This document shows positions 124 through 63,219 of a DNA stretch of 64,000 nt, piece by piece; position 1 is the first letter of the stretch, and each line of letters starts with the position of its first letter. Made by a program: the position numbers and the translations under genes. Under the pieces are notes generated by a model. It ran no database searches and was not told where the DNA came from. It was given only the letters and a program-made list of their open reading frames with translations. Source of the DNA: Mermis nigrescens (Eukaryota; Nematoda; Enoplea; Mermithida; Mermithidae); the NCBI GenBank assembly GCA_036768485.1, contig JAVLUZ010000145.1, forward strand, positions 3,340,756 through 3,404,755. The letters are read 5' to 3'.

Positions 124-346
124 TATAGGTAGGCGGCACAAACGTTCTGAGGGGGTGCAAGATTTCTTCAAAGGTCAAATATAGCCTTAAAAATGGCGGT
201 ATAACGAAAAAACACTATTTTTTAACGTTTATCATCGAGCTCTATCCATAAGTGCGAGAAAAACAAAAAGATTTATAAATTGAATTTTAGGGGGTATTTC
301 GGTTTCTTGGGGCAGGGGTGCATATCCCCCTCTACGCCCAGGTATG
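124..346 (+). mobile_element. MITE family A (hAT-type), copy 1
   Basis: Short non-coding element of the window's most common repeat. Ends approximate the family inverted repeat CAYACGTGGGC...GCCCACGTRTG. The exact 8-bp direct repeat GTTTGCAA flanks it (116-123 and 347-354), as expected for hAT transposition. Internal landmarks shared with other copies are the TTTCTCATCGAGCACTATCC-like centre and the G-rich 3' third. This is one of the more diverged copies. Confidence 0.85.
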
Positions 347-1178: not shown

Positions 1179-1795
1179 AGGAACGTTATGTATGCATTAT
1201 GTGATTTTGATAAACCAGGTGTGCAGTCTAGGATTCTTGGGAAAACATTGATGAAATGATATGCTAACATTGGCTTTTCAGCAAAAACACTAAAATTTTC
1301 ATAAATACTATTTAGTGGGTGAAGGCGACGGCTTAATTCAGGTAGATATCATTATTTATTTATTCCGTCATTTCTAATTGTCCATTATTTCTTTTATTTT
1401 TATTTATCTTTATTTCTTAATTTATCTAGAATATGCTTTATGTGCTTTATGGTTTAGAATATAATTTATGTAGTTTCGATGATTTAATATAATGATTTAT
1501 GGTTTAGGATCACATGCTTCAAAGGGTTTGATTCAAAATAGTTGGTATGGGTTCCAGAAAAGATCTCACGTGATTGATGCGTCGGCAATCTTTTAGTGAC
1601 CATCTCGTAACCGCTGCGTGCCTAAAACCAAGAAGGTAAAGCTGTAGCGGATTAATGTTCTCAATCTGCGTGTTTACGCATCCAAGCCTGCCGCCTAGGT
1701 CTTCCGATGCGTCTGTTATTTCGAAATTTCATTGTTCATATTTTAAATCTCATTTTTAAGACGTGCTTAACCTTGAAAATACGCATGCATTATAG
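1179..1795. other. Unannotated AT-rich spacer
   Basis: Nothing recognisable before the E repeat. It contains runs of TTTATTT-type sequence and no supported gene. Confidence 0.45.
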
Positions 1796-4700
1796 GTAGC
1801 GCGATAGCGCTACCTATTATATACTTGGCCACTTTTTTCTTATATGTTTATCACAGCGAGTGCGAAATTTGTGTCCCATCCCCTCACAGCAAATACGCAC
1901 ACACCTGGGAGGTCCGGTTTTTTTAAACGATAGAGAATTAAAAAACGATGTTGGTTTTTTGTTTACACTTAATACCGATTAAGCATTGAGTGTGTAAAGT
2001 GTAAACCGAAAAATCACATAATCTGCGGGAGGTCAATTTTTTAAATGTTGCACCTGAGCTGTAGATTATGAATCTGACCTTAAAATTTTTTTAACACTCA
2101 AAGGTTGTTGCAAAAAAGTGTAAAGTGTACGAGTTTTTTACTCTTTGCGTGTCCTTCAGCTTATCTAAGTCATTTTTTGTTTATGTACAGTCCAGTTGAT
2201 TTTATGTTGCAGAGAATCTCAATATCTCAAAACCCTTTTTTCTTTTCTTTTTACGCAACATTTCTTGATCTGTGATCGTTTTAGTGTAAAGAATTCGAGA
2301 CGAAAAGAGAAATTTCTTCAGCTACTCCGCTAAGTAGGCGGAATATGCTAATTATGCTTAAAATGTGCCCTGACCTCAGCGTTACAGATCCTAGTTTATT
2401 TTATTGCTATACAGCCAATATTACGGTGTTAGCGTAAGTGTAAAGTTTACACCAATAAGCATTTTCCGCCCAGAGCATTATTGGGTATAAAAGAATTAGC
2501 GGAAGACCAATTTTTTCAAAAAATGTTGTACCTCAGTTGTAAATCACGAATCTGGCCTTAAAATTTCTTTACACTCAATGGTTGTTGCACAAAAATGTAA
2601 AGTATAGTGTGACTAAGCATTAAATTCCGCCGATATGTTGAGTTCGTGCAAATGGCTGACGTATCCGTTCTCGCATGTAGATTTAAAAAAAAGAATAATG
2701 GGTTTAAATCTTTCGAATACTGATTTTTTCATTTTTTTAATTCTTTGGACCAAACTATTCACTTTATTTGACTTATTCATCTATTTAGGTTAAGTAATCC
2801 ACTGGCTTCTTCATTGATCGTTTTGTAAAACTCCATATTTATGTTTACTATTTTATTTTAGGGTCAGTATTTTAACATAGGTAGCGTGTTAGCGCGTACC
2901 TATAATATGCTTGGGTACCCCCAACACCTGTGCACCTCCTACAGCTACAAGGGGGCTGCCTTTTTTGTTTTTCGTTACACATAGAACTGACTGTGTAAAG
3001 CAGGTGAAAAGTTTTGGCGTAACGTTATAATATATAGCGAATTTTGGCGTATTTTTTTACCGGGCTTGTGGACAACTCAGTATTGACGTTAGAAACAATT
3101 TTATATCGTAGACTTCAAGAGGATAAATTTTGCAGATGCTTCTATTTGTTTTTTGAATTCGGCCTTAGTTCTCGAATGGGAGTGTAAAGAATGCGAAAAT
3201 CTGAGGGCCAATAGACACATTTCGGTCGAGCTTTTGACTTGTTTATGTCTGCCAACATCTCATGTTATGAGTTTTAAGAATTTTTTTGTGACAGAAATGC
3301 ACTGCGGATCAAGGGTTATCTTTTGCTTACCAGCAAACTTTTCTACAATCAATACGCAGCTAGTACTAGGGGTTTAAACTTTACACTCTAGTATACGATT
3401 AAAAAACAGATTTTGTCCAAGATTTCTCTGCCAACTTTTTCGGTAATGAGTTAGGATGAATTGAATAAAATAAAAATAAAATAACTTCTAAGGGCTACAC
3501 ATCGAAGCGAGCTGCGTTCGAAAAAACGTAATATTGAGTTGTTTATGGGGTGTAAAGTTTGAAATCTGATGTATAAAATGAGCGAAAAACAATTTTTTTC
3601 GTATTTTGATAGGTAAATGATATCAAATATTTTGCGGTACATAAGTTTGGCATATACAAATGTACTACAATCGAAGGGCTACAAACTGGAGCGAACCGAA
3701 TTTATTTACACTCAATAGGGCGTTAGGTTTAGATTTTTAAAGTTTACAATGTGGTGGACACTTAAAATTACGTGTTGTCCATTTTTTGTTCGTTACTTTC
3801 TCTATTCAGAAGTCGAACGAGGTCGAATAGAATGCAAATAAACTACTTTTTAAGGGGTACGCGTCCCAGCGGGTTGCGTCTGTTTATGTCAATATTTAGC
3901 TTTTTCGGGACGCATAAAGTCATAAAAATGGGGGAGTTAAATGTGTTTCTGTCTTGTGTTTTTCTGTCATGTACTGGCTTATGAGTCTGGACATAATCTC
4001 AAGTCTAAAAATGAACCAAAAAGTAAATGTGATACGCCGATTTGTTCGCACTCAACAGTGGTGTAAAGTGATTTACATTTGATATTTATTTGTCCTCAGG
4101 CCATTGTGGAGACTTAATTTTTTCATAAATCCTGATCGTAATATCAGAGTAATATCAGAATTACGAATCCGACTGAAATTTTCTTTGCACTCTGTGGTTA
4201 TGTAAAGTTTACACTGCATATTAATTTTCGTTCCAGAGCCTTGCGGAAGCATGATTTTTTCTAAAGTCTAAAAATGTACCAGGAATCAAATGTGAGACGC
4301 CAGTTGAGCGCGTTTGCTTATAATTAACAGTGGTGTAAAGTAGTTTATTACTGATGTTTATTTGTTCTCAGGTTATTGTGGAGACCCAATTTTCTCATAA
4401 ACTTTAATCGTAAGATTAGAGCAATAATAGAATTACGAATCCGACTGAAATCTTTCTAACACACTGTGGTTGTAAAAGTTCACACTGCATATTAGATTTA
4501 GTTCTAGAGCCTTGAGGAAGCTTAATTTTTTTCAGAATGTTCTACGTAGTTGTGTAGAGTTTGCACTATTTATTTGTTGTTAATATGTAGTTATACTACA
4601 AATTTATTTTACTTCCAAATCTGAGCGTTGGTGTTCCTTACACTTCATATTTGCGTAAAGTTTATGCTGAAAAACATTGATCTTTTCAAATAATGTAAGG

Positions 4701-5319
4701 TTGTCTTGTTTAAAAAGGATAATGCTGATCTCAAAAATAATATTGTTTCCCGCGTTCTTGAATTGCTGTCATTATTGTGGCATGTAACTGAATGTGTTTA
4801 CTGACTGATGTACTCAAATCATGCGGATTAAAAGTAGGGTACTAGCAAATAAAAATGCTCCGATGGAACAAAACAGATGAATATACTTAGAATTGTGGTT
4901 TATTAAGGATGTAAAAGGAGAGGAGACTAGGAAAAAAGTTACCTAAAGTTGCAAAATCTGCTAAAAATCACACTTTCTCTAAGCAACGCAAAAAAATCGA
5001 AGTATATCCTGTGGCCTCTGATAAAGAGTCTTTTTTAAATAATTTTTAAAGTTGCAGATAAGAGTGTATAAAGGAAATCTGGAATGTTTACTTTTTTTAA
5101 ATTGCTGGCAAGTAGCAACGCTGACTAGCTTCGTATCCTGATTTATAGAAAACTGAGAGGTATTGTATTTAAACTTGTTTTATTTTGTTATGAGCATTAT
5201 AGGCAGGGGCCGATTGATTAGTGCACACAATCACTACGGGCATGCTAGTGTATTTACATTTAGTCTGTTTCAAGTCAACTTACGCGTTTCCTACTGTTTT
5301 AAACCAAGAATTTCTTCAA
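1796..5319 (+). repeat. Repeat family E, copy 1
   Basis: Non-coding repeat of unknown class, colinear with the copies at 35.7, 42 and 45-49.5 kb. It opens with a perfect hairpin (stem TAGGTAGCGC, loop GATA, 1796-1819) followed by TATTATATACTTGGCCA. The body is dense in GTGTAAAG and its complement. The 3' part (from about 4840) carries the left arm of the inverted-repeat unit seen whole at 42.5-43.26 kb, but the right arm is missing. About 340 bp near 2794-3135 are absent from the 45 kb copy and include a second, diverged E hairpin at about 2879, suggesting an E head nested inside this copy. Confidence 0.8.
2794..3135 (+). repeat. Nested E-like head inside E copy 1
   Basis: Extra segment relative to the 45-49 kb copy. 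It holds a degenerate hairpin TAGGTAGCGTGTTAGCGCGT followed by ACCTATAATATGCTTGG, which resembles the E start. Boundaries are approximate because they come from comparing E copies by eye. Confidence 0.5.
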
Positions 5320-5683
5320 TTGTCTTATATGCATCTGTAACAAAGCCGATACATTCACCAGCTAACAGTCTTATTTTACGTTCGTATATTTATGCTAAAG
5401 CTAGGTACTTATTAGGTATACCGCCCATTTTCTATATTCGTAATTCCGCCTACTATTTGAAGCTCAAATTCTACCCGCTCTCTGGTAAATAGCTCAGTCC
5501 AAGAGATCTCCACTAGTAGTTTAGGATCGATGCTGGCCAGCTAGCTGGCCAGCTACATAGTATAAGCTTACGATGTGGCATATGTGTGACGCTGGTGCAA
5601 ATGCTATGGAGCATTTGTGTCAGCAGTTTGATGCATTGCGCATCACTGTTAGGCAACAGCAAGATCAGTGCTGACTTCAAGCG
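5320..5683. other. Junction between E copy 1 and the LTR element
   Basis: No LTR or primer binding site could be identified here, although gag of the downstream retroelement starts at the right edge. A 22-bp perfect palindrome (two GCTGGCCAGC arms around TA) lies at 5532-5553. Confidence 0.4.
5532..5553. repeat. 22-bp perfect palindrome
   Basis: Two copies of GCTGGCCAGC in inverted orientation separated by TA, at the boundary between the E repeat and retroelement A. Function unknown. Confidence 0.8.
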
Positions 5684-6611
5684 GTGACATCAACCTCCGC
5701 CACCAGTACCAGCCGGGATGTCGAATATTTTTGTGGACGAACAGACGAAAATTTCGACCTATGGACTGATCGTTTTATGCGATTGGCTTTGGCCAATGGC
5801 TGGGACGACAGAAAGAAACGTCTATTGCTGTCTACATTTTTATGCGGTTTTGCCAAAGTCGCTTATGATACCATTCCCGAACCGACTTGCACTCCATTGA
5901 CTTACGATCAGTTAGTCGAAGAATTACACGAACAGTTTGTACCTGCTGACACTACCGAATTGACGGCATTACAACTTCACAACCGGCGTCAAGGACCGTG
6001 AGTGCCAATGGCCAAATACGCGTTGGACTTGCAGCAATTGGCGCTGAAAGCCTATCCGGACGTCAATGCTGACTCACTGAATGCTTAAGCCGTTGTTTTG
6101 GCCTTTCGTTTCAGATAAAAAGCCGTCCACATTCCACGGAGCCAAAGCTTTAGCCCGGCAAGCCAAAACCCAGCAGCGTTTGCAAGCAGAACGGCAACCT
6201 GCTGGCCATTTGTATGCTGCAGCCGAAGGAAAACAGGAAGAAGGAACAAAAATGCGAATTGATTTTGGGGTAAGATCACCAGCCGGGCAGCGCCCTTCCA
6301 AGATGCAGCGCCGGGTTGAATTTTCGCGAGCCAGCATCTGCTGTTTATAGTGTGGCCGTCAGGGCCACATGGCGCGAAATTGTTTCCAACGTCAGCGGAT
6401 CTCATGTCAGCGACCATATCAGCAGCAACCGGCCAGACACCTTTTTTTGATGGACCGGACGACGCCATACCAACGTCGATTTCCGAACAGTGACCCGAGT
6501 GTGAAACGCCCAAGCCTAGCCCCAGTTTGTTCAGTCCGACCACCCCCAAGGCAGATTAATGCTGTCAACAACAAAACATCTCAATATCGGCGCTATGAAG
6601 CCTTGTGGTAG
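5684..6611 (+). pseudogene. gag: gag of retroelement A (broken)
   Basis: Capsid/nucleocapsid precursor remnant. The first frame (5684-6001) reads like a Gypsy gag (FCGRTDENFDLWTDRF, later QLHNRRQGP). It stops at a TGA that looks like a mutated arginine codon, continues in the same frame to about 6088, then shifts frame. The second frame holds LARQAKTQQRLQAERQPAG. A nucleocapsid CCHC knuckle (C-x2-C-x4-H-x4-C) spans 6342-6383, and its first cysteine pair is split by an in-frame TAG at 6348. Upstream sequence before 5684 is also gag-like but interrupted. It precedes the spacer with splice-donor motifs and the envelope gene. Clearly a pseudogene; family assignment is by motif and context only. 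Confidence 0.85.
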
Positions 6612-7173
6612 CAAAAACAATATTTTAGAGACAAAAACGAACCGATTTTAGATGACGTAAGTAACTTACCATGTGAAAATAACCATGATGTAATTTGTGC
6701 GATCAAAATATTTCGACACCTTTACTGAAAATACTTATCAATTCACGGCCAATCAGCCAATCTGCCGTGTTGAATGTTGATGAACGCCAAATTGTGTCGG
6801 TCTGGGACGGGCCCCAAGAACGTTTGATGATTGATGATTACCGTTCAAAATGAACACGTCAACAGGATAGATCATGGACAAGTAAGGGTGGCTCCCAATC
6901 AGGTAAGTCGAAAAGTAAGTATGGAGCCTGGAGATCCTGTTAAAATAAATTTATATCGATGTTTACGTACAAATTTAATGCAATTTTGCGCGAATTTTAG
7001 AATTCGCCAGGTAAACATACCAAATTGGGACCCAGTGAGTCCCCAGGTAAGTGAGATTCCGACGGAAGTGGGTTTTTATCAAACGATGCAGTCAAATTTA
7101 ATGACTTTGTACGCCAATTTTAGCGGTAAAAAGGTAAGTGCGCCAAATTTACACAAAACGAAGAATTTCTTGA
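6612..7173 (+). promoter_or_regulatory. gag-env spacer with clustered splice-donor consensus sites
   Basis: GTAAGT occurs at 6657, 6903, 6915, 7047 and 7134, with GTGAGT at 7035. Around 6915-7145 the sequence looks like two diverged copies of a roughly 110-130 bp unit. Each has a donor motif, a CAAATTTAATG stretch and an AATTTTAG that could serve as a splice acceptor. Inference: this may have been the splicing control region for subgenomic env or pol RNA. No transcript evidence is available. Confidence 0.5.
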
Positions 7174-9348
7174 ATGTATTGTCAATATTATGCACAAATA
7201 TGTATAATTTTATGCTTAATTATGTTTTGCATAGTGAGCATCGTTCTTTTTAGTTTTCCAGGCGCAAAAGCTTTTCAGTTATGTGAACAACAACCTGCTG
7301 GCGCCTATTATGTGCTACAGACAAATATTTTGTGTAAATCGTCCATTGAAGGACACATTCGCGCATTTCATGCCAAAATTTGGATGCCGAATCTCGAAGC
7401 AACTACCGCGCGAGCCTATCGATATGTGGTCACAACGCACACGATTTGAACCAACACCGGCTTTTTCGGCTCCCGTGGAATTGTCCGAGACTCGCATGAA
7501 CCACGAACAATCTCGCTGCATCGCTGCCTCCAAATGATCGCTAGCGAATATTGTCGAGGACAACTTTACAACATACACCAAGGTTTGTGGCGCACTAATT
7601 CGACCTTAACGGTAAGATATCAGTATTGTTGTGAGGATGTTTGTGAATCAGTTGACAATGCAATGATTCAGCATGGTCTGGTAGCTACTTATGATGGTAT
7701 GCATGTGCTATCTAATTTAGGCGATGTATCAGCGTGTCAACTCGAAACAGACCAGTTTATAATTTATGATTCGATTATTATATGGCAATCAGCCGATTTA
7801 AAAACTCCTTGTCCTATTGTACCAGACGGACAAAATTTATTAATTCGAAGATCTAGGCCATTATGTATCATTGAGCAATTGCAAGAAGCATTTACACTTT
7901 TTGACAATAAAAATTTGCCTAAAAATCATTGTTTACCGACATACTTATTGTACATGGATCAAGGTACTATCTTGCAATTGTATGATTCTAAAACTTTTTG
8001 TACGGCCCAACCTGATTTTGAGCCAATGAAAATTTCAACACAACACATATGTGGGGGAACCCCAGCCACCCCTCAACCCCACGATCCACTTATGATTCAA
8101 TTTACAGAATTTAATTCGCGCATATAATATTTAGAAGCAACACTCACAACATGGGAATCCACCCGATTTAATCAAATTTGGATGCAAATCTGCCGATTGG
8201 CAGATTCGCAGCTTCAGATTGTTTCTGAGTTATTACGTTTAGATCCGACGGTAGCAGCCCAATCATGGCTGTGACGCCGCAATGTCGCAGCCTGAATGGC
8301 AGGCGAAGCTTTGCTAGTAAGGCCGTATATGCAACTTAAGGCTGATTCAATATTTTGGACTCATCAAGTCGCTGATACTTACTATGCTATGCTAACTATA
8401 ATTGTAAACGAAACTGTTTATTTTGTTTTACCAGGGTCAGAAGATGTGGTGGCTCACGCCCCAAAAGTACCGTGTTTGTATCTTCCAGTGGGAGTTCATT
8501 TTGACTCTAAAACTCAAAGGTGGGTCAGGTCCACACCTCGGCGTTAGGGGAGGGTGGGGGGTTTGGGGGTATGCACCCCCAGAAACCAAAATACCCCCCC
8601 AGAAATCAAAATACCCCCCATAATTCAATTTTTGAAATTTTTTTGTTTCTTTCACAATTTTTTGATGCCAATGGATAGTGCATGATGAGAAACATCGAAA
8701 AAAGATGTTTTCATCGCCATACCACCATTTTTAAGGCCATTTCTCGACCTTCAAAAAAGCTTGCACCCCCCCCCAGAATTTTCTTGCTGCCCACGTATGG
8801 TCAGCTCCCGTGGAAGCATGGATGTCAAACCTCTTTTACAACGTTTAAATTTTTCCTTAGCATCCCAAAGCCTCATTGTTTTTGTTGCCCTATTACTATT
8901 AAAAGAGGTCGGACAACACCCTCCTTTTCAAACATCCCTGGAACTCGCTACACTTGAAACATGGAGATTGTAGAAACAAATGCAACAATTAGTTGATTTT
9001 ACATCAACTTTACACGTTGATCCCACCCAATTCTGTCAACTACTTGGAGATATAGGCGATGGCGTAAAAGATGTAAATGGTTTAAGTGTGTCACATCTGC
9101 AAAGTGCTTTAAGTGGTTCATTTTCATATACTAGTCATGCATTATCTTCTTTTAGTAGAGGATTTATTCATACAATCACAAATGCATTATTTTGGGCAAT
9201 TTTTGCAGTTTTCTTTATTTATATCGGCTATTTAGCTTTGTGTTATGGTTGGTGTTGCATGTGGTGTCAGTGGGGATGTGGTTCTGTTACTTTGTTGTGT
9301 CAGTGGTTTGAATCTTTGTGTCGCTTACCACGTCAGCGAACTACGTAA
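7174..9348 (+). pseudogene. env: envelope-like glycoprotein of retroelement A (broken)
   Basis: Remnant of a membrane glycoprotein, encoded in one frame from 7174 to a terminal TAA at 9346. It begins with a hydrophobic signal peptide (residues about 9-28). A cysteine-bearing ectodomain follows, with FFGS and WRTNS-type segments and paired cysteines (YQYCCEDVC). Near 9170-9260 there is a long hydrophobic, aromatic segment followed by a Cys/Trp-rich tail, consistent with a transmembrane anchor. In-frame stops lie at 7447, 8125, 8272, 8293 and 8971, and a MITE interrupts it at 8532-8799. Without the MITE it would be near 630 codons, a normal size for such a protein. Origin is not certain: it looks like the class I-type or chuvirus-like glycoproteins captured by invertebrate LTR elements, but that is inference. 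Upstream is gag; downstream is protease. Confidence 0.75.
8532..8799 (-). mobile_element. MITE family A, copy 3, inside the envelope pseudogene
   Basis: Reverse-oriented copy (CACACCTCGGC ... GCCCACGTATG). Flanks GTCAGGTC (8524-8531) and GTCAGCTC (8800-8807) differ at one position, an 8-bp target duplication. The env frame resumes in the same phase on the far side, which shows the insertion came after the element was in place. Confidence 0.9.
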
Positions 9349-10222
9349 TATGTTCGCATCGCTCGACCACCTTTCCGGCAGTGCCACGAGCCATCAGTCG
9401 CTTATCATCGAACTCGCAGTCGCACGCCAATTTATGCGATTCATGACTCGCCAAAAATTCAGGTTAGCCAACCACACGTATTTGTCCATTTTCCTAATGG
9501 TCAACGCGCGGAAGTGCTTGTCGAGTCCGGCTCTACTGTCACAGTTATCGATTACTCGACATATAAACGTGTCGCACCAGAAGTACCCCTGAATCCCTGT
9601 TTGCGACCATCCGCCGTTTCTATCAGCGGTCATTCCATAAAATTGCTCGGATACATTGTTTTGCATGCTCGGAATGGACAGCAAACGCTCCAATAACATT
9701 TATACTTATGTTGAACAGCCCATATTCTATTCTTTTAGGGTATGACACCATAGGTGGGCAGCATTGAAATTCTGGGAGGAGGGGTGTAAAAAAATTTTCA
9801 AAGGTAAAAAAATGGTTTTAAAAGTGGTTGTATGGCGAAAAATACACCATTTTTCGACGTTTCTCATCGAGCACTATCCAATGGCATCAAAAAATCGCTA
9901 AAAAAGCAAAAAAATTTCAAAATTTGAATTCTGGAGGGTATTTTGATTTCTGGGGGGGTATTTCAACTTCTGGGGTGCATACCCCCAACTTCTCCCACGC
10001 CCACGTGTGTATGACACTATAATTGAACTTTGTGGCAACAAACTCCGTGTTTTTACAGATCATGTGCAACACTTTATTCGTTTTGGCAATAATTTGCCAG
10101 TTTCTTTGTGTAAAGTAACCAATAGTGTAAATTCGCATGCAAATTTAAGCGTAAATTCGTGTGTACCAACAGTTTTAGCGATACTCAAAGACACAGTAAT
10201 TTTACCACCTATGACCATTTAG
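9349..10222 (+). pseudogene. pro: retroviral-type aspartic protease and pre-RT linker of retroelement A
   Basis: The frame continues directly after the env stop. A beta-strand-like stretch VFVHFPNGQRAEVLV leads into ESGSTVTVID, the position of the D-T/S-G active site of retropepsins. The catalytic aspartate is replaced by glutamate (codon at 9523-9525), so the enzyme would not be expected to work. A second glycine-containing region (LGYDTI-like) is split by a MITE at 9749-10009. The frame then runs on to a stop near 10220. Position between env and reverse transcriptase supports the protease call. Confidence 0.75.
9749..10009 (+). mobile_element. MITE family A, copy 4, inside the protease pseudogene
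   Basis: Starts CATAGGTGGGC and ends GCCCACGTGTG. The exact 8-bp duplication TATGACAC flanks it (9741-9748 and 10010-10017). It falls within the conserved LGYDT segment of the protease, again postdating the retroelement. Confidence 0.92.
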
Positions 10223-11480
10223 GTATTACCAGTTACTGCCGATCTAACGTCATTAGCTAATCAGTGGCTTCGGATCACAAGTGTAAACTCAAATGTTGGA
10301 TGAAGTGCATGCTTTATATGTACCTAATATGCATTTATATACTGATTTCATCAATATTGATGCATTACCGATTGCAAATTATTCAATACGACCTATTTGT
10401 TTATATATAAACACACATATTGCAGCCATCTCTTCCGTTCCTCAAACTCCTTTACACTTAAAAAGGGAGGAGGAGGATAGCGAGGAAATAAAAAATTTCC
10501 AGAAAATGGTCAAAGAAAAGTAATCTCATATCAAAAATCCTGAAATTCGTCAACAATTTGTGGCAGTTTTGAACATTAACGCCAAAGTTTTTGGCATAGG
10601 TCATCAACTAGGTAGAAAACAAACCTTGTTAGACATGGAATTGATTCCACTGATCATAGACCTATTTCACAACCCCCTTATCGCATACCGTTTGCTAAAA
10701 GACAGATAATTGAGGAGCTTGTTAATCAAATGTTAGATTCCGGGATTATCCGTCCTTCCCAAAGTCCCTGGGCAGCTCCCATTGTTATGGTTGATAAAAA
10801 AGACGAAACTAAACGATTTAGCATAGATTATCATAAATTAAACGATTGTACGGTTAAGGATGTGTACCCCCTTCCTCTTATTGATGATATTTTTAGTCAG
10901 TTACGAGGTTCAACTATTTTCTCGACATAAAACTGTGTTCAATTCGTTTTAGGCCTCTTTTAATTTAATGTTATGCCGTTTGGGCTGACGAACGGGCCAG
11001 CCACTTTTCAGCAAACTATGGAACAAGTTCTATGCGACCTAAAATACGTCATTGTTTCGTCTACTTGGACGATATTTTGATTTGCGGAACAGACCCAAAA
11101 CCGCATATCAGTCAATTGCAACAAGTTTTTGACCAATTGATACGTGCAGAATTGCCGTTGAAACTCAAGAAGTGCGAGTTTGCGTTAGACGAGGTTAACT
11201 ATTTGGGCTACATCATCGATTGCTGTGGTCTCAGAGTTAATCCAGCCAAAATTGAGGCGCTGGCTAAAATGCCAGTGCCCCAGTCAAATCCAAATTACGT
11301 AGTTTTATAGGTTCAGCTAATTATTATAGGAGATTCATCAATAGTTTGCAGATAAAACCTGTCCTTTAAATAAAGTTTTGTGTAAAAATGTCTCTTTTCA
11401 GTGGAACACTTTTTGTCAGCAAAGTTTCCAGGAAATTAAAAATGATTTAACTCGTGCTATTACTTTAGCTTTTCCAGATT
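10223..11480 (+). pseudogene. pol: reverse transcriptase of retroelement A (broken)
   Basis: Ty3/Gypsy-type reverse transcriptase, which copies element RNA into DNA. Landmarks in order: LDSGIIRPSQSPWAAPIVMV and RFSIDYHKLNDCT (10730-10930), VMPFGLTNGPATFQQTM near 10970-11020, and the catalytic YLDDIL with its two aspartates at 11062-11073. After that come LPLKLKKCEFA and YLGYIIDCCGLRVNPAKI. The domain is split over at least three frames by small indels and stops (for example near 10930 and 11310). The region 10223-10500 has no clear domain and probably corresponds to the poorly conserved linker before RT. Confidence 0.9.
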
Positions 11481-12440
11481 TTAACAGCCAATCTTTGATC
11501 CAAATCTGATGCCAGTGGATATGGCGGAGGAGGTGTTTTATCACAGAAAATCACTGGAGAAGAGCATCCAATTGCTTTTGTGTCGCGAACGCTGACTAAA
11601 GCCGAACAAAACTATTCTACCATCGAAAAGGAGGCGCTGGCCACTGTTTGGTCGATTAAACAGTTTTGACCGTATCTCTATGGTCACTGATTCACGCTGG
11701 TCACTGATCATGCCCCGATTCGATTTTTGAAAATCCATGACGCTTCGCCCTCGCACTTGGTGCGATGGGTTTTGTTGCTCTTTTGTTGCTTGCGACGCTA
11801 TTTACCAAAAAGGACGCGAAAACGCGGACGCAGATGCATAATTGCGTTTGCCGATTGAAAACTCGGACTTACTTAATTGTGTCAATCTAATAATGCGGAA
11901 AATTGTGCTAAAATCGATTCTGACGTAAATTGTGTAAAACCTACAGCATTGATGTAGGTACGAGTGTTAATGCGGAAAATTGTGATCTTAAAAATGTATG
12001 TCGTAGTGGAAATGATAAACTTACAAATATATGTAGTAGTGATGATCATAGATGCTACGTTAACAGTGATAAATACAGTGATAATAGTGATAATAAAATC
12101 ACTTGGGGACTGAAAGAGTGCAGTAACGATTGTGTTGTTGATCTTAATGATGTTAATATTAATTTTTGTACTGAAAATGTATATGCTATTGATTTAAATT
12201 GTAATTTGTTTCATGATTTGCCTGACATGCAACATCGTGATGTATTTTTGGGTAACATTTATAGACTGTTGCAGACGCGTAAACGACCTGAGCGGTTGAC
12301 CCCAGATCAGTGGAACCTCACTGATCATTTTGTGTTGACAATGGGAACCTAAAGTATCAGCAGGATCCGGAACAAGAGCCGTACAGGTTGGTCCACATTT
12401 TGTTATGATCGTTGCACGACAATCCGATTTCAGGTTTTTC
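11481..12440 (+). pseudogene. pol: RNase H and integrase start of retroelement A (broken)
   Basis: RNase H sequence follows the RT: EEHPIAFVSRTLTKAEQN, then STIEKEALATVW, then TLVTDHAPIRFL, with stops and frameshifts. A serine/asparagine-rich connection (11930-12352) leads to LPDMQHRDVFLGNIYRLL and finally LHDNPISG at about 12404-12430. That last string matches the start of the histidine-cysteine (H2C2) zinc-binding part of retroelement integrases. The sequence then runs straight into a GGGA microsatellite, so the catalytic core of integrase, any 3' region and the 3' LTR are missing. Confidence 0.8.
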
Positions 12441-12678
12441 AGGAGGGAGGGAGGGAGGGAGGGAGGGAGGGAGGGAGGGAGGGAGGGAGGGAGGGAGGGA
12501 GGGAGGGAGGGAGGGAGGGAGGGAGGGAGGGAGGGAGGGAGGGAGGGAGGGAGGGAGGGAGGGAGGGAGGGAGGGAGGGAGGGAGGGAGGGAGGGAGGGA
12601 GGGAGGGAGGGAGGGAGGGAGGGAGGGAGGGAGGGAGGGAAGGAGGGAGGGAGGGAGGGAAGGAGGGAGGGAGGGAGA
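12441..12678 (+). repeat. (GGGA)n microsatellite
   Basis: About 240 bp of nearly pure GGGA repeats with a few AAGG interruptions at the 3' end. It marks the broken end of retroelement A. Confidence 0.99.
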
Positions 12679-12771
12679 GAGCATTGTGCCGTGTTGGCTA
12701 TCTTATAACATGGGTAATCTTATAACGTTTCCGCTAGGATAACAGGGCTAACTATTCTTTTAATCCTATTG

Positions 12772-13055: not shown

Positions 13056-14033
13056 GGCTGAATCCGATCCTGGGGGGCACGCCGCCAGTTCTGACCGGAG
13101 CGACTCGAGCAAACAAATTAGTGACCCGAGCGCTCACTTAAGTAAACAAAAGTAAGCAATAAATTATGCTGGGCTGACCTCGTCGGTCGACCAATTATGC
13201 GTCTGGTACTTACAGTAATGCGCCCGACTAGGGGAGTATTTTTTTGAACACAATTTTTTTACAGAGCGAAAATCAAATTTTAAAGTTTAGTTTTTTGAGC
13301 TCATCGTGAAAAATGGAGCAAGAAAATATATAATATTACATTATTTCATTCACTCAGGAAAAAGTTGACTTATTTTGAATTTTGAGAGCACTTGACATTT
13401 ATTTTGTCCATAAAAGTTGAATATTCCAAAATAATACTAAGCCAACAGCGTCAACATGAAAAACTACCATGATTTGTCAACGAACATTATACATAGAAGC
13501 ACACGCATCGCAAAAATCGTTGAACAATCGCTCCATCGATTCAGACTTACTGTGCCAGATCCATTCGATCAGACAGAAACCTCGCCGTACTTTTCTGGAA
13601 TATTAATAAAACAACATACAAAAAAATTCAAAATAAAATTCAAAATATGTGACCATGCCAAGAAATAGAACGCTACTTATAAAACTGCATTTTATTAGTG
13701 CTCTCACATTGAAAATCAGTCAACTTTTTCTAGAGTGAATGAAATGTTGTCAAATTATATATTTTCTTGCTCCATTTTTCACGATGAGTTCGAAAAACTA
13801 AAGTTTAAAATTTGATTTTCGCTCTGTAAAAAAATTGTGTTCAAAAAATACTCCCCTAGTCGGGCGCATTACTGTAAGTACCAGACGCATAATTGGTCGA
13901 CCGACGAGGTCAGCCCAGCATAATTAATTGCGCACTTTTGTTTACTTAAGTGAGCGCTCGGGTCGCTAATTTGTTTGCTCGAGTCGCTCCGGTCAGAACT
14001 GGCGGCGTGCCCCCCCCAGGATCGGATTCAGCC
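13056..14033. mobile_element. 978-bp foldback element with 337-bp inverted arms
   Basis: Arms 13056-13392 and 13697-14033 are reverse complements of each other with few differences, beginning GGCTGAATCCGATCCTGGGG. AT-rich flanks share TAATTAT (13048-13054 and 14034-14040), a possible 7-bp target duplication. The 304-bp centre holds one open frame. The superfamily is unknown. Confidence 0.88.
13456..13668 (+). CDS. Unknown 70-aa frame in the foldback centre
   Basis: This small open frame begins at an ATG and fills most of the unique centre between the two 337-bp arms. The product would be basic at its C-terminus (KKFKIKFKICDHAKK) and contains RSTRIAKIVEQSLHRF. No domain is recognised and no start context decides the case. 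It may be chance or the remnant of a transposase exon. Its only argument is position: it is the sole open frame of any size between the arms. Confidence 0.25.
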   Translation: MKNYHDLSTNIIHRSTRIAKIVEQSLHRFRLTVPDPFDQTETSPYFSGILIKQHTKKFKIKFKICDHAKK

Positions 14034-15089: not shown

Positions 15090-15327
15090 CACACCTGAGC
15101 GTGGGAGGTTTGGGGGTTGCATCCCCCTGAGAAACCAAAATACCCCCCAGAATTCAATATTTGAAAGTTTTCTGTTTTATTCGCAATTTTTTGATGCTAA
15201 TGGATAGTGCTCAATGAGAAACGTTGAAAAATGGTGTTTCTCCGCCATACCACTAGTTTTAAGGCCAGTTTTTTACCTTTGAAAAATCTTGCACACTCCC
15301 CCAGAATTTTGGTGCTGCCCACGTATG
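15090..15327 (-). mobile_element. MITE family A, copy 5
   Basis: Reverse orientation, CACACCTGAGC ... GCCCACGTATG. Flanks TTTGCGAC (15082-15089) and CTTGCGAC (15328-15335) are an 8-bp duplication with one mismatch. Confidence 0.9.
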
Positions 15328-16026: not shown

Positions 16027-16283
16027 CATACGTGGGCAGCAAGAAAATTCTTAGGGGTGCAAGATTTTTTAAAGGTTAAAAAATGGCCTTAAAAATGGTG
16101 GTATGGCGAAAAAACACCTTTTTTCGACGTTTCTAATCGAGCACTATCCATTGGCATAAAAAATTGCGAAAAGGAAAAAAAGCGAAAAAATTGAATAAAA
16201 ACGAAAAATTGAGTTCTGGGGGTATTTTGATTTCTGGGAAGGGTGCATACCCCCATATCCCCCAAGCCCCAACGCCCAGGTGT
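16027..16283 (+). mobile_element. MITE family A, copy 6, in the HSDL2-like intron
   Basis: CATACGTGGGC ... CGCCCAGGTGT. Flanks TGTGGCAT and CTTGGCAT match at 6 of 8 positions. Confidence 0.8.
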
Positions 16284-17476: not shown

Positions 17477-17730
17477 CGTAGGTGGGCAGCACTGAAATTC
17501 TGGGGGGTGAATTTCAGGGGAGAGGGTGAAAAAATTTTTGAAGGTCAAAAATGGTCTTTAAAGTGGTCGTATGGTGAAAAAACACCATTTTTCGACGTTT
17601 CTCATCGAGCACTACCCAATGGCATCAAAAATTCGTTAAAGAAGCAAAAAAAATTTCTAAAAATTGAATTCTGGGGGTTTTCCAACTTTTGGGGGGGTGC
17701 ATACCCCCAAACCCCCCACGCCCACGTGTG
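17477..17730 (+). mobile_element. MITE family A, first of a tandem pair
   Basis: CGTAGGTGGGC ... GCCCACGTGTG. The exact 8-mer GTCAAAAC stands on both sides (17469-17476 and 17731-17738). Confidence 0.9.
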
Positions 17731-17738
17731 GTCAAAAC

Positions 17739-17989
17739 CATAGGTGAGCAGCACCAAAATTCTGGGGTTGCAAGATATTTAAAGGTCAAAAATTGGTCTT
17801 TAAAGTGGTCGTATGGTGAAAAAACACCATTTTTCGACGTTTCTCATCGAGTACTATCCATTGGCATCAAAGAATTGCGACAAAAACAAAAAAATTCAAA
17901 AATTGAATTCTGTGGGGCATTTTGATTTCTAAGGGGTTGTATTCGGCCTTCTGGGGGTGCATACCCCCAGACCCCCACGCTCACGTCTG
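17739..17989 (+). mobile_element. MITE family A, second of a tandem pair
   Basis: CATAGGTGAGC ... GCTCACGTCTG. It shares its left GTCAAAAC with the first copy and has a third GTCAAAAC at 17990-17997. Confidence 0.9.
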
Positions 17990-20540: not shown

Positions 20541-34302
<13,762 letters not shown>

Positions 34303-44560: not shown

Positions 44561-44842
44561 TTATTCTATAAATTTCGATTCCATCAACCAGATTTTTTTA
44601 TAATCTTCAGAAACGTAATAATCTTCCCGAATTATTAAAATTTGTGTCTTTTCTAAATTTAAACAGGCTCCACCAGCTTTGCTAAATTTAGCATACTCTT
44701 CGAGGATTTTTCCAATAGACATAATACCTTTTCGCATAAAATTAGTATCATCAGCATAATTACTCAATTTAATTTCATTTTTTCTTAATGAAATGTCGCA
44801 TACATCCGGATTATTTCTAATTTTATCACAAAAATTTATGCA
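44561..44842 (-). pseudogene. LINE reverse transcriptase fragment
   Basis: A - strand frame encodes NNPDVCDISLRKNEIKLSNY, then YADDTNF, then FSKAGGACLNLEKTQIL. YADD (44747-44758) with the following sGa.lN.eKTqi segment is the palm of a non-LTR (LINE) reverse transcriptase. Only about 90 codons remain. The frame runs into a GT-rich simple repeat at its 5' side and stops at the Helitron end. It lacks endonuclease and the rest of RT, so it is a dead fragment. The LINE clade cannot be decided from this length. Confidence 0.75.
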
Positions 44843-44894
44843 GTTGCGTGTGTGTGTGTGTGTGCGTGTGTTTGTGTGTGCGCGCGTGTGTAGG
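44843..44894 (+). repeat. GT-rich simple repeat
   Basis: GTGTGTGTGTGCGTGTGTTTGTG with variants. Short and impure. Confidence 0.85.
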
Positions 44895-47439
44895 CACATG
44901 AAAATATAGCAACAAAATACAATTCTAAGAAAAAATATCAGAATAGCATCTGCTACATCGGTTTTCTCATTCATCATAGGTAGCGCGATAGCGCTACCTA
45001 TTATAAACGTGGCCATCCTTCTTTCTTATATGTTTGTCACAGCGAGTGCGAAATTTGTTTCTCCCCCTCACAGCTATAACGGCACACATCTGGGAGGTGC
45101 GGGTTTTTAAAAGGTAGATAATAAAAAAAACTTAGATACCCTTTTTATTGTTTACACTCAATACCGAGCTAGTCGTGAAAGTGTAAAGTGTAAACCGAAA
45201 CATCAAATACTTTGCGGAGGGCCAATTTTTAAAATAAATGTTTTCCCTGATTAGTAGCTTACGAATCTGGTCTTAAAATTTCTTTACACTCATTAGTTGT
45301 TGCACAGGAGTGTAAATTAGACGGTTTTTTACTGGTTTAATGTGCACAAGCATATCTAACTCAGTTTTACATTCTATGAAGTCTGATTGGTTTCAAAAGG
45401 TAGACGGTTATAAAATCTAGGGGAGCCTTTTTTATTTTTTTAAAGTAACATTTTCAAATTTAGAGACGGTTTATTATAAAAAGTCTGAGACAAAAAATAT
45501 TTTTTCCAGCCATATTCTCCATTTAGTAGACAGAACGTGGTAATTATCTTCAAAATGTTCCTCGTCCTAAGCGCTACACGTCAAAATGTATTTTGTTACT
45601 TTACAATCAATAATTCCGTTATTAGTGCAGGTGTAAACTTTACACTGAACAATTTTTTCTGCCCAGAGCGTCATGGATGATGAATTTTTAGAAAAAATCT
45701 TCTCCGTAAGGTAAGAATAACGAATCTGACCTTTAAACTTTTCTACAGCCAGTGCTTGTTGAGGCATGAAGAGGTGAACTTTGAATTATACATCTATTTT
45801 CTAATGTCGATAGATAACTCCGTATTCCATATTGTTTGATCAATTTTTCTTATTTCAGAGGTACTCGTCTTTATTACATAATTATTTTTATTGTCATAAA
45901 TGCACTATTCTTAAACTTCAGTAGAATAATGATTATTTTTCAATATAGTATTATCAAGCTGAAATCTTGGCTGCGACTTGAGTTGGTGCAATGGCTGACG
46001 TATCCGTTCTCGCTTGTGGATTTAAAAAATAATGGGTTCAAGTCTTCTGAATACTAACTTTTTTTATTTTTTTTAATTCTTTCAGCAAAATCATGCATTT
46101 CATTTGACTTATTCATCTATTTAGGTTCTGCAGATCACATAGTTTTTTGTTTCTTGAATTTCGCCTCAGTTCTTGAATGGGAGTGTAAAGAGTGTGAAAA
46201 TCTGGGGGTGAAAAGACACACTTTGGTCGAGTTTTCGACTTGTTTATGTCTGCCAACAACTCCAGTTATGAGTTTCAAGAAATTTTTCTGACAGAAATAT
46301 ACTACGGATCATGGGCTATCTTCCGCTTACCAGCAAACTTTTCTACAATCAATACGCAGTTAGTACCAGGGTTTAAACTTTACACTCTATTGGATGAGTA
46401 AAAAGACAGATTTTGTCCAAGATTCCTCTGCTGACTTTTTCCACTATGAGTTGAGTTGAATTGAATAAAATAAAAATAAAGTAACTTGTAAGAGCTACAC
46501 GTCGAAGCAAGCCGCGTTCAAAAATACGTAATATTAAGTTGTTTATGGGGGTGTAAACTTCGAAATCTAAAGTGTAAAATGGGCCAAAAAACAGGTTTTT
46601 TTCGTATTTTAATTAGTAAATCATATCAAATATTTTGCGGAACATAAGTTTGGCACGTACAAACGTTAAACAATCAAAGGGCTGCAAACTAGCTTGAACC
46701 GAATTTATTAACACTCAATGGGGCGTTAGGTTCAGATTTTAAAAGTTTACAATGTGCTGGACAGTACAAAATACATGTTTGTCCATTTTTTGTTCGCTAC
46801 TCTCTCTGTTCAGAAGTCGAGCGAGGTCGAATAGAATAAAAATTAAGTACTTTCTAAGGGGTACGCGTCATAGCGAATTGCGTTTGTTTTCATCAATATT
46901 TAGCTCTTTCTGGAGGTGTAAAGTCAAAAAACTGGGGAGTAAAACGTGTTCCTAGCTCGTTATTTTTCTGCCGGGTTCTGGGTTATGAGTCTGGTCATAA
47001 TTTCAAGTCTAAAAATTAACCAGAAACAACCAAATGTGATACGCCAGTTTGTTTACACTCAACAGTGGTGTGAAGTGGTTTACATCTGGGGCCGTATTCA
47101 CAATCGAGGCTAAAGTCTATAGACCGGTCTAAATTTTTAGACCGGACTGAATTGGTATTCACAATGGTGCTAAAGTCTATAGACCGGTCTAAATCAGGCA
47201 ACATTTAGCCTGAAAATTTAGCCTGCTATCGACTGGGCTAAATGCCATTTAGACTGAAAATTTCATTCTTCTCGACAGGTCTGATTGTATGATTATTAGT
47301 GTGAATATGGCAGCTTTTTTAAATATACATACATCACGAATATCAAAGAGCTTTTAGAAGAGAACGCATTTTTCGGGAAATTCGTGATTCACTTTCACAA
47401 TCTGATTCCCACTCGAACGTTTTCGATTTGATAGGGAAG

Positions 47440-61945: not shown

Positions 61946-63219
61946 TTGCAATCATCAGATAAGTTCAGCACGACGGAAGACAAACGCAATATAGTGAGTC
62001 CAACGCTTTCAGAATTATATGATAATATAGTTGAAACTGCTAGACGGGATTACAACAATCGAATAACACGTAGTAATAAACGATATTCTAGAAATCTAGG
62101 CGATTTTATTGCAGAAATGAATGAGGGAAATGCCTTAGCAGATGTGCAAGCTCTTTTGCAGCAAATTATGCAGCAGGTGCGCGATTTTATGAAAGTCGAC
62201 CGATTTCTCAACCATTTTGTGATTTAAAGCCGTTTACGGAGATTCGAATGATGTGAACTGGTCTGAGTGAGAATGTCGTTTTTCTAGAATTTCTGTCTTG
62301 GCGGGTGCGAATTAATTTGAACCAAAAGTAGCTCTTTTGCCCGCGTACCTTAAAGGGACTGCCATGTCATTTTACAATGAATTAGGAAAAAGATACCCTG
62401 CTTTTGATACGTGGGATGAGTGGAAAAAATCATTTTTGGAGAAATTCCCGGATAATAGGCAAATGGACGTGAAATATGAGCAATTAGTGGCTAGAAATCA
62501 ACGAAGGAATGAAAGTATTACAACGTAAGCGAGTGATTTAAGGCGCCTTGCTAAGCGCGCATTCCAATCGTGGAATAGGGAAGGAGAAACTGATAGTATA
62601 ATTAAAAATCATTTCATAAATCGTCTTTCGCCAAATCTAAGGTGTTGGGTTCAAAATGCAGAACCAAAAACGTTCGAGGTGGCAGTGATTGAAGCGGAAA
62701 AACTGGAACTGCGCGATAAACAATGTAATAGCGATTGGGCTAATAGCTTAAGTAATACTGCAGGTCAGCTAGAAACATTAGTGCGACAATTAAACGCAGT
62801 AATAATTATAGATACGACACCATCGGAAGAAAATCTTCGTTTTAACGTCAGTTCGACTAATCCTAACGTTGTTTTGTCAAATTTTCTCGAAAATCGATTA
62901 AATAATGGTAGGCTTTCGAATCAGAATGTCGATTTCAGGGATGGTAGAAATGCTGGTAGAGGTCAGTGGTATCGGCGTTATTACAATAGCTTTCGGGAAA
63001 ATTCTAGCGGAACCCAACGGGGCCCCACAATAACAATGGGGGACGCTCCTATGGAAGGACCCCCGATGGAGTAGTTATTTGCAATAACTGTGGTCGCATA
63101 GGACACTATCGCACGGCTTGTCCGCGTTGGCATAGCGCTGAAATAAGTCACTTTTCAAGAACCTCACGTAACGTACGGCACGCAGGTCCATCGCGAAATT
63201 GAGTGTCCGACTTTTGTGG
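61946..63219 (+). pseudogene. gag: gag of retroelement B (broken)
   Basis: Gypsy-type gag remnant. The N-terminal frame (61946-62227) lacks an ATG at its start. Capsid sequence follows in another frame: YLKGTAMSFYNELGKRYPAF, WDEWKKSFLEKFPDNRQMD, then, after a stop, SDLRRLAKRAF, a matrix/capsid helix pattern shared with retroelement A. A nucleocapsid CCHC knuckle (C-x2-C-x4-H-x4-C) spans 63080-63121 in a third frame. The gag of this copy is clearly different in sequence from retroelement A's, so the two are separate lineages or old relatives. Confidence 0.85.

What the first reader, a model, noticed from the sequence alone, without database searches (positions are those of the whole stretch)
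5684..12440. LTR retroelement with envelope-like gene between gag and protease
Seen: gag with CCHC, then a signal-peptide/transmembrane glycoprotein frame, then protease, RT, RNase H and integrase start, all on one strand. Established: in Gypsy/errantivirus, BEL and retroviruses, env is 3' of pol. Env and protease share a frame and lie about 100 bp apart, which argues against a random join. The order gag-env-pro-pol would be a distinct retroelement architecture.
Basis: partly seen in the sequence, partly recalled or inferred. Interest (0 to 1): 0.88.

Follow-up and report, generated by a model that had tools for sequence, protein, structure and literature searches.

The report
Retroelement carrying envelope inside Gag-Pol

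Summary
The window copy is a decayed provirus (part of a 5' LTR, gag, linker, env, protease, RT, RNase H; cut off at the start of integrase by a GGAG array). In its own genome (524 Mb) the env anchor piece has 150 listed matches, itself included: 118 have an RT match 1.3-5.7 kb downstream on the same strand, none upstream, 32 none listed; 34 share one open frame with RT. The order gag-env-RT occurs at 79 loci, with no reversal among the listed rows; 8 have all three in one frame. One copy has a 2,302-codon ORF from gag to integrase between identical LTRs with a 4-bp target duplication. The order was checked in 14 families, whose Env identity falls to about 29%. Env matches class III fusion proteins (Pfam PF24664; herpes gB by profile). 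A signal-like hydrophobic segment and a C-terminal anchor flank it, which predicts a membrane-threaded Gag-Env-Pro-Pol polyprotein; that step is inferred. Literature listings showed no such order, but the most relevant paper (Chary and Hayashi 2025) could not be read.

The parts
5336..5589 (+). part of the 5' LTR
   Evidence: 93% identical over about 260 bp to both LTRs of copy A (L061, L062); begins TGTAAC as the relatives' LTRs do
5675..6001 (+). Gag capsid region, open piece
   Evidence: PF03732 E=0.011, below cut-off; matched by a gag protein of family B with stops (C51:3346361-3346843)
6342..6383 (+). Gag CCHC zinc knuckle, with a stop inside it in this copy
   Evidence: three-frame translation; intact in L034, L035, L058
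6384..7173 (+). Gag-to-Env linker
   Evidence: open in one frame with gag and env in L034, L035, L058
7174..7272 (+). hydrophobic segment TM1, predicted internal signal peptide ending A-K-A
   Evidence: segment conserved in position in the 9 families checked
7273..9183 (+). Env ectodomain, class III fusion-protein-like, with stops and a repeat insertion
   Evidence: relatives: PF24664 in 8 of 8; 16 ectodomain cysteines in 7 of 8 families, 17 in one
9184..9240 (+). Env membrane anchor TM2
9241..9348 (+). cysteine-rich tail of Env, predicted cytoplasmic
9349..9696 (+). aspartic protease region, decayed here
   Evidence: same frame as env; intact relatives carry D-S/T-G; L004 matches Asp_protease_2 at 7.5e-5, 23.8 bits against 24.3
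10616..10930 (+). reverse transcriptase, N-terminal piece
   Evidence: Ty3 Gag-Pol in PDB, E=1e-16; top chain 4ol8 (named RT/RNase H) 3.6e-17
10969..11310 (+). reverse transcriptase, YLDD piece
   Evidence: PF00078 E=9.8e-11; 150 matches in the genome, itself included
11378..12346 (+). RT-RNase H and connection region, broken into pieces
   Evidence: 67-83% identical to the pol ORF of L062
12328..12435 (+). last piece of pol; reaches only the first residues of the integrase H2C2 region
   Evidence: residues 308-348 of the L062 piece; its HH motif starts at about 342
8557..8799 (+). interspersed repeat interrupting env
   Evidence: also at 15123-15327 and in L035
9742..10015 (+). interspersed repeat between protease and RT
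12442..12681 (+). GGAG array of 60 copies at which the element ends

Best explanation
This is a decayed copy of a large family of Ty3/Gypsy-type LTR retroelements with the gene order gag-env-protease-pol, and in intact members Gag, Env, protease and polymerase are likely made as one polyprotein that is predicted to be threaded through the ER membrane. Shown: the order, the open frames, the two hydrophobic segments on either side of the Env ectodomain, and the Env match to class III viral fusion proteins. Inferred: Gag is translated in the cytosol; TM1 acts as an internal signal peptide; the Env ectodomain enters the lumen, folds with its conserved cysteines and is glycosylated; TM2 stops transfer; protease, RT, RNase H and integrase stay in the cytosol. 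Signal peptidase would free the Env N-terminus and leave Gag-linker tethered by TM1, and the element's own cytosolic protease would cut Gag and Pol loose. Capsid precursor, enzymes and Env would so be delivered together to one membrane for budding, much as a flavivirus polyprotein delivers capsid and glycoproteins (recalled comparison). Family H splits Pol into a second frame, which would lower Pol relative to Gag-Env-Pro.
For: Order: of 150 listed env-TM rows 118 with RT downstream, 0 upstream; 79 gag-env-RT triples, 0 reversed, among 143 gag rows. One frame (judged by equal open-frame length and phase): 34 env+RT, 23 gag+env and 8 gag+env+RT; ORF arithmetic 2,302 and 2,287 codons. Domains: gag, RNase H, H2C2, rve, and a CCHC below cut-off; protease and RT right after Env; four more families with protease and RT after Env. 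Env: PF24664 8 of 8, best E 1.4e-15; herpes gB chains top a PDB profile search, E about 1e-5. Topology: residues -3/-1 of the presumed cleavage site are AA, IA, IA, VG, MA, AA, IA, IG, VA in the 9 families, 1-3 basic and no acidic residues in the 15-residue N-flank of TM1 in 9 of 9, Cys-rich C-flank of TM2 with 1-2 basic and 0-1 acidic residues in 8 families. Constraint: synonymous differences near or at saturation, nonsynonymous 0.26-0.40, between families in Env. Recent activity: copy G has identical 163-bp LTRs and TATG on both sides.
Against: No RNA, protein or topology data. In 5 of the 7 fetched B copies that keep gag, gag is not in the env frame, and the one I copy read has gag in another frame, so a single ORF is not universal; of 118 env-RT pairs 55 are out of phase, many of them decayed copies. 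12 of 30 env loci show no gag within 1.5 kb, 7 of these 12 being looked at and gag-less; env-deleted copies exist (L082). Charge around TM2 is neutral in F and H, and sequons do not exceed the shuffle mean in C. The structure prediction failed (mean pLDDT 31). Unprocessed Gag-Pol at 1:1 is unusual for LTR elements (recalled), so extra regulation is needed.
Confidence: 0.62

Rival explanations
1. Splicing separates the products: the full-length RNA gives Gag-Env (or the polyprotein), and an RNA from which the env segment is removed gives Gag-Pro-Pol; env would sit inside a retained intron.
For: Three AGGTAAGT donor-like motifs in the 64-kb window all fall in the linker before env. Many retroelements splice (recalled). 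It would solve the Gag:Env:Pol ratio.
Against: 3 matches are within chance for the whole window (18 of 100 shuffles reach 3). Env and pol are open in one frame at 34 loci, which splicing alone would not require. No RNA was available, so this is not excluded.
Confidence: 0.22
2. Gag and Env-Pro-Pol are separate products joined only by frameshifting or readthrough, and the single ORFs are a derived state in some families.
For: B and I copies with gag in another frame; H has pol in another frame.
Against: Gag, env and RT in one frame at 8 loci from several families, gag+env in one frame at 23; gag start to env in one ORF in the C, D, E, F, G and H copies read.
Confidence: 0.14
3. A chimera, nested insertion or assembly join at this locus.
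For: The window copy is decayed and interrupted by repeats.
Against: Same order at 79 loci and in 14 families; Env and RT identity to the window copy fall in parallel over 16 hand-picked loci, Spearman 0.86.
Confidence: 0.01
4. The env domain is kept for an intracellular role (particle trafficking or membrane anchoring), not for cell entry.
For: Gag-less and env-less copies amplify or persist; no particle data.
Against: Constraint over the ectodomain with conserved cysteines and match to the class III fusion core.
Confidence: 0.2

Closest known systems
Errantivirus / gypsy and other env-bearing Ty3/Gypsy elements of animals
   Same: Ty3-type RT, RNase H, integrase with GPY/F motif, LTRs, a viral fusion glycoprotein; type III glycoproteins in gypsy elements are mentioned in PMC13172572 (passages seen)
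   Different: Chary and Hayashi 2025 (eLife 108449), the key survey, is not held and nothing of it was seen
Atlas virus of hookworm (Belpaoviridae), PMC9094657 (passages seen)
   Same: one ORF for a whole retroelement with env, 2,828 residues, identical LTRs
   Different: order Gag-Pol-Env; class II phlebovirus-like Env; BEL/Pao RT
Anakin and other chuvirus-glycoprotein captures, PMC10084718 (passages seen)
   Same: a Jingchuvirales-type glycoprotein captured by an LTR element
   Different: BEL/Pao element in mosquitoes; the passages report Gypsy fragments beside such glycoproteins but no clear Gypsy capture
Troyka, PMC12440569 (abstract, first of five parts of the text and section 12 seen)
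   Same: mostly a single Gag-Pol protein in invertebrates
   Different: no envelope, CG..CG ends, 3-bp TSD, other zinc finger, no GPF/Y
Flavivirus polyprotein and foamy virus Env leader (both recalled)
   Same: capsid followed by an internal signal peptide and membrane proteins, viral protease on the cytosolic side; in foamy viruses an Env leader that touches Gag
   Different: works-like comparison only; no sequence relation claimed

Membership tests
Ty3/Gypsy (Metaviridae) | domain order protease-RT-RNase H-integrase | tested here: met
   L004 PR (just below cut-off) then RT; L066 RH, H2C2, rve; L085, L087, L089, L091 PR then RT
Ty3/Gypsy (Metaviridae) | GPY/F motif in integrase | tested here: met
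   3 of 3 C-termini (L062, L064, L066)
Ty3/Gypsy (Metaviridae) | RT nearest to Ty3/Gypsy in a tree | not tested
   no tree built; Ty3 Gag-Pol is second of 19 PDB sequence matches, the first being named RT/RNase H only
Ty3/Gypsy (Metaviridae) | TG..CA LTR ends, 4-6 bp target duplication | tested here: met
   copy G: TGTAGC..GCTACA, TATG both sides; copy A: TG..CA, no clear duplication; 2 copies looked at
Errantivirus and retroviral plan | env 3' of pol | tested here: not met
   of 150 listed env rows 0 with RT upstream, 118 downstream
Errantivirus (baculovirus F-type env) | class I F-type envelope | tested here: not met
   PF24664 in 8 of 8; no F-type family in the Pfam tables
Class III viral fusion proteins | sequence match to the family above its cut-off | tested here: met
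   PF24664 46.7 and 45.9 bits against 27; 67.2 for family K; gB in PDB. That PF24664 is class III is recalled
Class III viral fusion proteins | fold | tested here: inconclusive
   AlphaFold2 model of P0001 with 3 rows has pLDDT 31
Troyka | no env, CG..CG ends, no GPF/Y | tested here: not met
   env present; TG..CA; GPY/F present
Belpaoviridae (Atlas type) | Env at the C-terminus and altered RT site YVDN | tested here: not met
   Env precedes PR; YLDD
Retroviridae | second RNase H with tether | not tested
   not examined

The most novel reading that the evidence does not exclude
A whole lineage of reverse-transcribing elements replaces the gag-pol-env plan by a flavivirus-style, twice membrane-threaded Gag-Env-Pro-Pol polyprotein, in which capsid, class III fusion protein and enzymes are born covalently linked at one membrane; the arrangement is old enough for Env to have diverged to about 30% identity inside one genome while the order stayed fixed.
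Probability: 0.5. Interest if true: 0.93.

Novelty: new variant of a known kind. Interest (0 to 1): 0.86.

Why it matters
Every retrovirus and env-bearing LTR element that I know of (recalled) makes Env from the 3' end, by splicing or as the tail of the polyprotein. An env locked between nucleocapsid and protease, in frame, in many families, means that infectious-type elements can be built on another plan. It also makes testable how Env, Gag and Pol are delivered to one membrane without a separate env mRNA. Annotation tools that look for env only 3' of pol would call these elements plain Gag-Pol retrotransposons and miss them.

Tried and rejected
Rejected: local chimera. Env 3' of pol in the families examined. 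Splice-donor cluster as proof of an env intron: within chance. Led nowhere: Pfam and PDB with window env pieces alone; protein search with the window env piece, none of 68 candidates; IMG/VR scans with RT, env and the env alignment; Rfam; AlphaFold2 of P0001, pLDDT 31, so no fold search. RT rows without env upstream: 33 of 150; I looked at 3 of these 33: one env-deleted D copy, two rearranged B copies. Env rows without an RT row: 32 of 150, not examined. Gag rows followed by RT with no env row: 7 of 143, two of them that D deletion pair (C162, read as L082, and C332 with the same open-frame lengths, not read), the rest not examined. An RT search meant to settle this did not complete.

Papers: ten searches, of which I saw the listings, with six direct phrasings such as gag-env-pol, found 0 papers. 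One search lists 12 papers that hold the words 'between gag and pol' with envelope and retroelement, one search lists 3; none was opened for that phrase. Chary and Hayashi 2025 is not held. So absence from print is not established.
Full report
What is in the window. It carries stops and frame changes in gag, env and pol and two repeat-derived interruptions. It starts with part of a 5' LTR at 5336-5589 and ends at a GGAG array at 12442, where only the first residues of the integrase zinc-binding region remain.

Other copies. The window lies in G000, 524 Mb in 860 contigs, unnamed. The env anchor piece gives 151 matches, 150 listed, the RT piece 150, the env ectodomain piece 155 and a gag piece of family B 143; each list includes the window copy or its own source. 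Pairing them by coordinates: of 150 env-anchor rows, 118 have an RT row downstream on the same strand within 8 kb (median gap 1,513 bp, range 1,285-5,698), 0 upstream, 0 on the other strand, 32 none listed; 34 share one open frame, judged by equal open-frame length and phase. Of 143 gag rows, 96 have the env anchor downstream and 0 upstream; 79 show gag-env-RT; gag and env share a frame at 23 and all three at 8. In the 30 loci fetched around the env ectodomain, gag is upstream within 1.5 kb in 18, downstream in none, and not seen in 12. The lists are capped: the tool scores only the best candidates.

Families. I named the groups A to K for convenience. B, C, D, E, F, H and I are 47-58% identical to A in Env (G was not in that alignment). 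Gag start, CCHC and the Env N-terminus lie in one ORF in the copies of C, D, E, F, G and H that were read; CCHC to Env in A at L034 and L035, and gag to Env in B at L058 (L057 has one stop). In 5 of the 7 fetched B copies that keep gag, and in the I copy read, gag is in another frame. In H, gag and env form one ORF of 1,386 codons that runs 320 codons past the anchor match and so probably holds protease, and RT follows in another frame. Family K has an Env 27-31.5% identical to the A1 Envs by tblastn; env and protease are in one ORF, and the gag row of that copy has the same open-frame length, 2,493 codons. A search with the K Env gives 108 matches, many 32-43% identical, in open frames of up to 3,104 codons. 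For four of these families the pieces flanking Env were read: both flanks are open end to end in 4 of 4. Downstream, 4 of 4 match protease (one of them, L085, below the cut-off) and RT; upstream, 2 of 4 match Gag in Pfam, one more has only a CCHC motif and one has nothing recognised. So 14 families were examined; in all 14 Env precedes protease or RT on the same strand, and gag is recognised upstream in 13 (one of these by CCHC alone). For K the RT itself was not read.

Complete copies. Copy G has one ORF of 2,302 codons from gag to integrase (6,906 nt by arithmetic on two end pieces, agreeing with the open-frame length that the tool gives for the gag, env-anchor, env-ectodomain and RT matches), LTRs of 163 bp that are identical, TG..CA ends, a purine-rich stretch before the 3' LTR and TATG on both sides. 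Copy C has one ORF of 2,287 codons; no LTR pair was seen in its pieces. Copy A has 416-bp LTRs, 99.5% identical, no clear target duplication, and lacks gag. Identical LTRs mean a recent insertion.

Env. Intact Envs match Pfam PF24664, viral fusion glycoprotein (Monjiviricetes_fusion), in 8 of 8 families (best 1.4e-15), BDV_G in 8 of 8 (below the cut-off in the three seen in detail), and herpes Glycoprotein_B in 1 of 8, below the cut-off. A profile of the 8 hits herpes gB chains in PDB at E about 1e-5 over a stretch of some 150 residues. The fold was not confirmed: the one model made has pLDDT 31. Between families synonymous differences are 0.66-0.85, near or at saturation, while nonsynonymous ones are 0.26-0.40; pairs of B copies give ratios of 0.15-0.54 where defined; among A copies, which hardly differ, ratios run from 0 to 3, 6 pairs with L039 lying above 1, and carry no weight. 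Among 5.8 billion proteins only two of 6,727 candidates scored E <= 0.01, both on 6-kb metagenome contigs.

How it most likely works. Two hydrophobic segments bracket the ectodomain (in F the first is weak and was found only with a shorter window). The first has 1-3 basic and no acidic residues in its N-flank and ends in A or G at -1, with A, I, V or M at -3, right before (F/Y)Q-x-C-E, in the 9 families; that fits a signal-peptidase site by the usual rule (recalled). The ectodomain has 16 cysteines in 7 of 8 families (17 in F) and 5-8 sequons, above the shuffle mean in 7 of 8. The anchor is followed by a Cys-rich tail with 1-2 basic and 0-1 acidic residues. From this I infer that Gag and Pro-Pol stay in the cytosol and Env in the lumen, with host signal peptidase and the element's own protease cutting on the two sides. 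No experiment or RNA supports this yet. Splicing or frameshifting remain rivals.

Derived forms. Copies without gag (a shared join in four A copies; three B copies), and D copies without env (L082, 97% identical to D over gag, env replaced by a repeat) show that parts can be lost, presumably with help in trans.

Generic Pfam check. PF24664 gives 68 rows; set by hand against the 150 RVT_1 rows, 6 of 68 have an RT row within 8 kb, all downstream on the same strand, three of them in the same 2,508-codon frame. This is a weak test, because both lists are cut.

What is known. By features tested this is a Ty3/Gypsy-type element (domain order, GPY/F, LTR ends; no tree), not Troyka, not BEL/Pao of the Atlas kind, and it departs from the errantivirus plan in env position and env class. 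A single-ORF retroelement with Env is known in Atlas virus, with Env last. Class III glycoproteins in LTR elements are known. The order found here showed in none of the listings of ten literature searches, one of which used direct phrasings and returned nothing; papers listed for looser phrases were not opened. The survey most likely to contain it could not be read, so I call it a new variant of a known kind and keep the bolder reading as the novel case.

Mended against the calls: counts now name the capped lists and that the window copy is included; CCHC coordinates; the PDB name of the top RT chain; protease matches below cut-off; the charge of the TM2 flank; how papers were seen.

Noticed in passing
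L032, L033, L036, L037 and L051-L053, upstream of env: Gag-less copies with a shared unrelated 5' part: four A copies share one join before env, three B copies another at TM1.
   Followed up: partly
L082 (C162) and C332:530414-533282: Env-deleted copies of family D: gag and pol kept, env replaced by a repeat; C332 has the same open-frame lengths but was not read.
   Followed up: partly
window 6901-7139: All three AGGTAAGT motifs of the 64-kb window lie in the gag-env linker (within chance as a count for the window).
   Followed up: partly
window 13072-14015: Nested inverted repeats, arms of 188 and 141 nt, 92-94% complementary: a foldback-type element next to the provirus end.
   Followed up: no
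window 154-282, 947-1075, 9786-9914, 16056-16184, 17524-17652, 17766-17894: A family of short interspersed repeats, one copy inside the provirus.
   Followed up: no
L080 (C64:6598100-6601900): A pol fragment of family B joined to about 2.2 kb open in all three forward frames, probably a repeat array; it would account for the 2,856-codon frame.
   Followed up: partly
window 44561-45025, minus strand: Fragment with weak RVT_1 match (E=2.3e-4, below cut-off), by eye a non-LTR type RT.
   Followed up: no
window 29081-29533, minus strand: Possible host exon, weak DNA photolyase match (E=0.0011, below cut-off).
   Followed up: no
window 62529-63074: Gag-like open frame by eye; only a weak SCAN match (E=0.011, below cut-off).
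   Followed up: no
L079 (C61:36162539-36163888): COX1 copy inside a 48.8-Mb contig, readable with code 5 (AGR Ser, ATA Met, TGA Trp): likely a nuclear mitochondrial insertion.
   Followed up: partly
G000, rows: Many more env families, 32-43% identical to K, in open frames of about 600 to 3,100 codons; the flanks of only four were read.
   Followed up: partly
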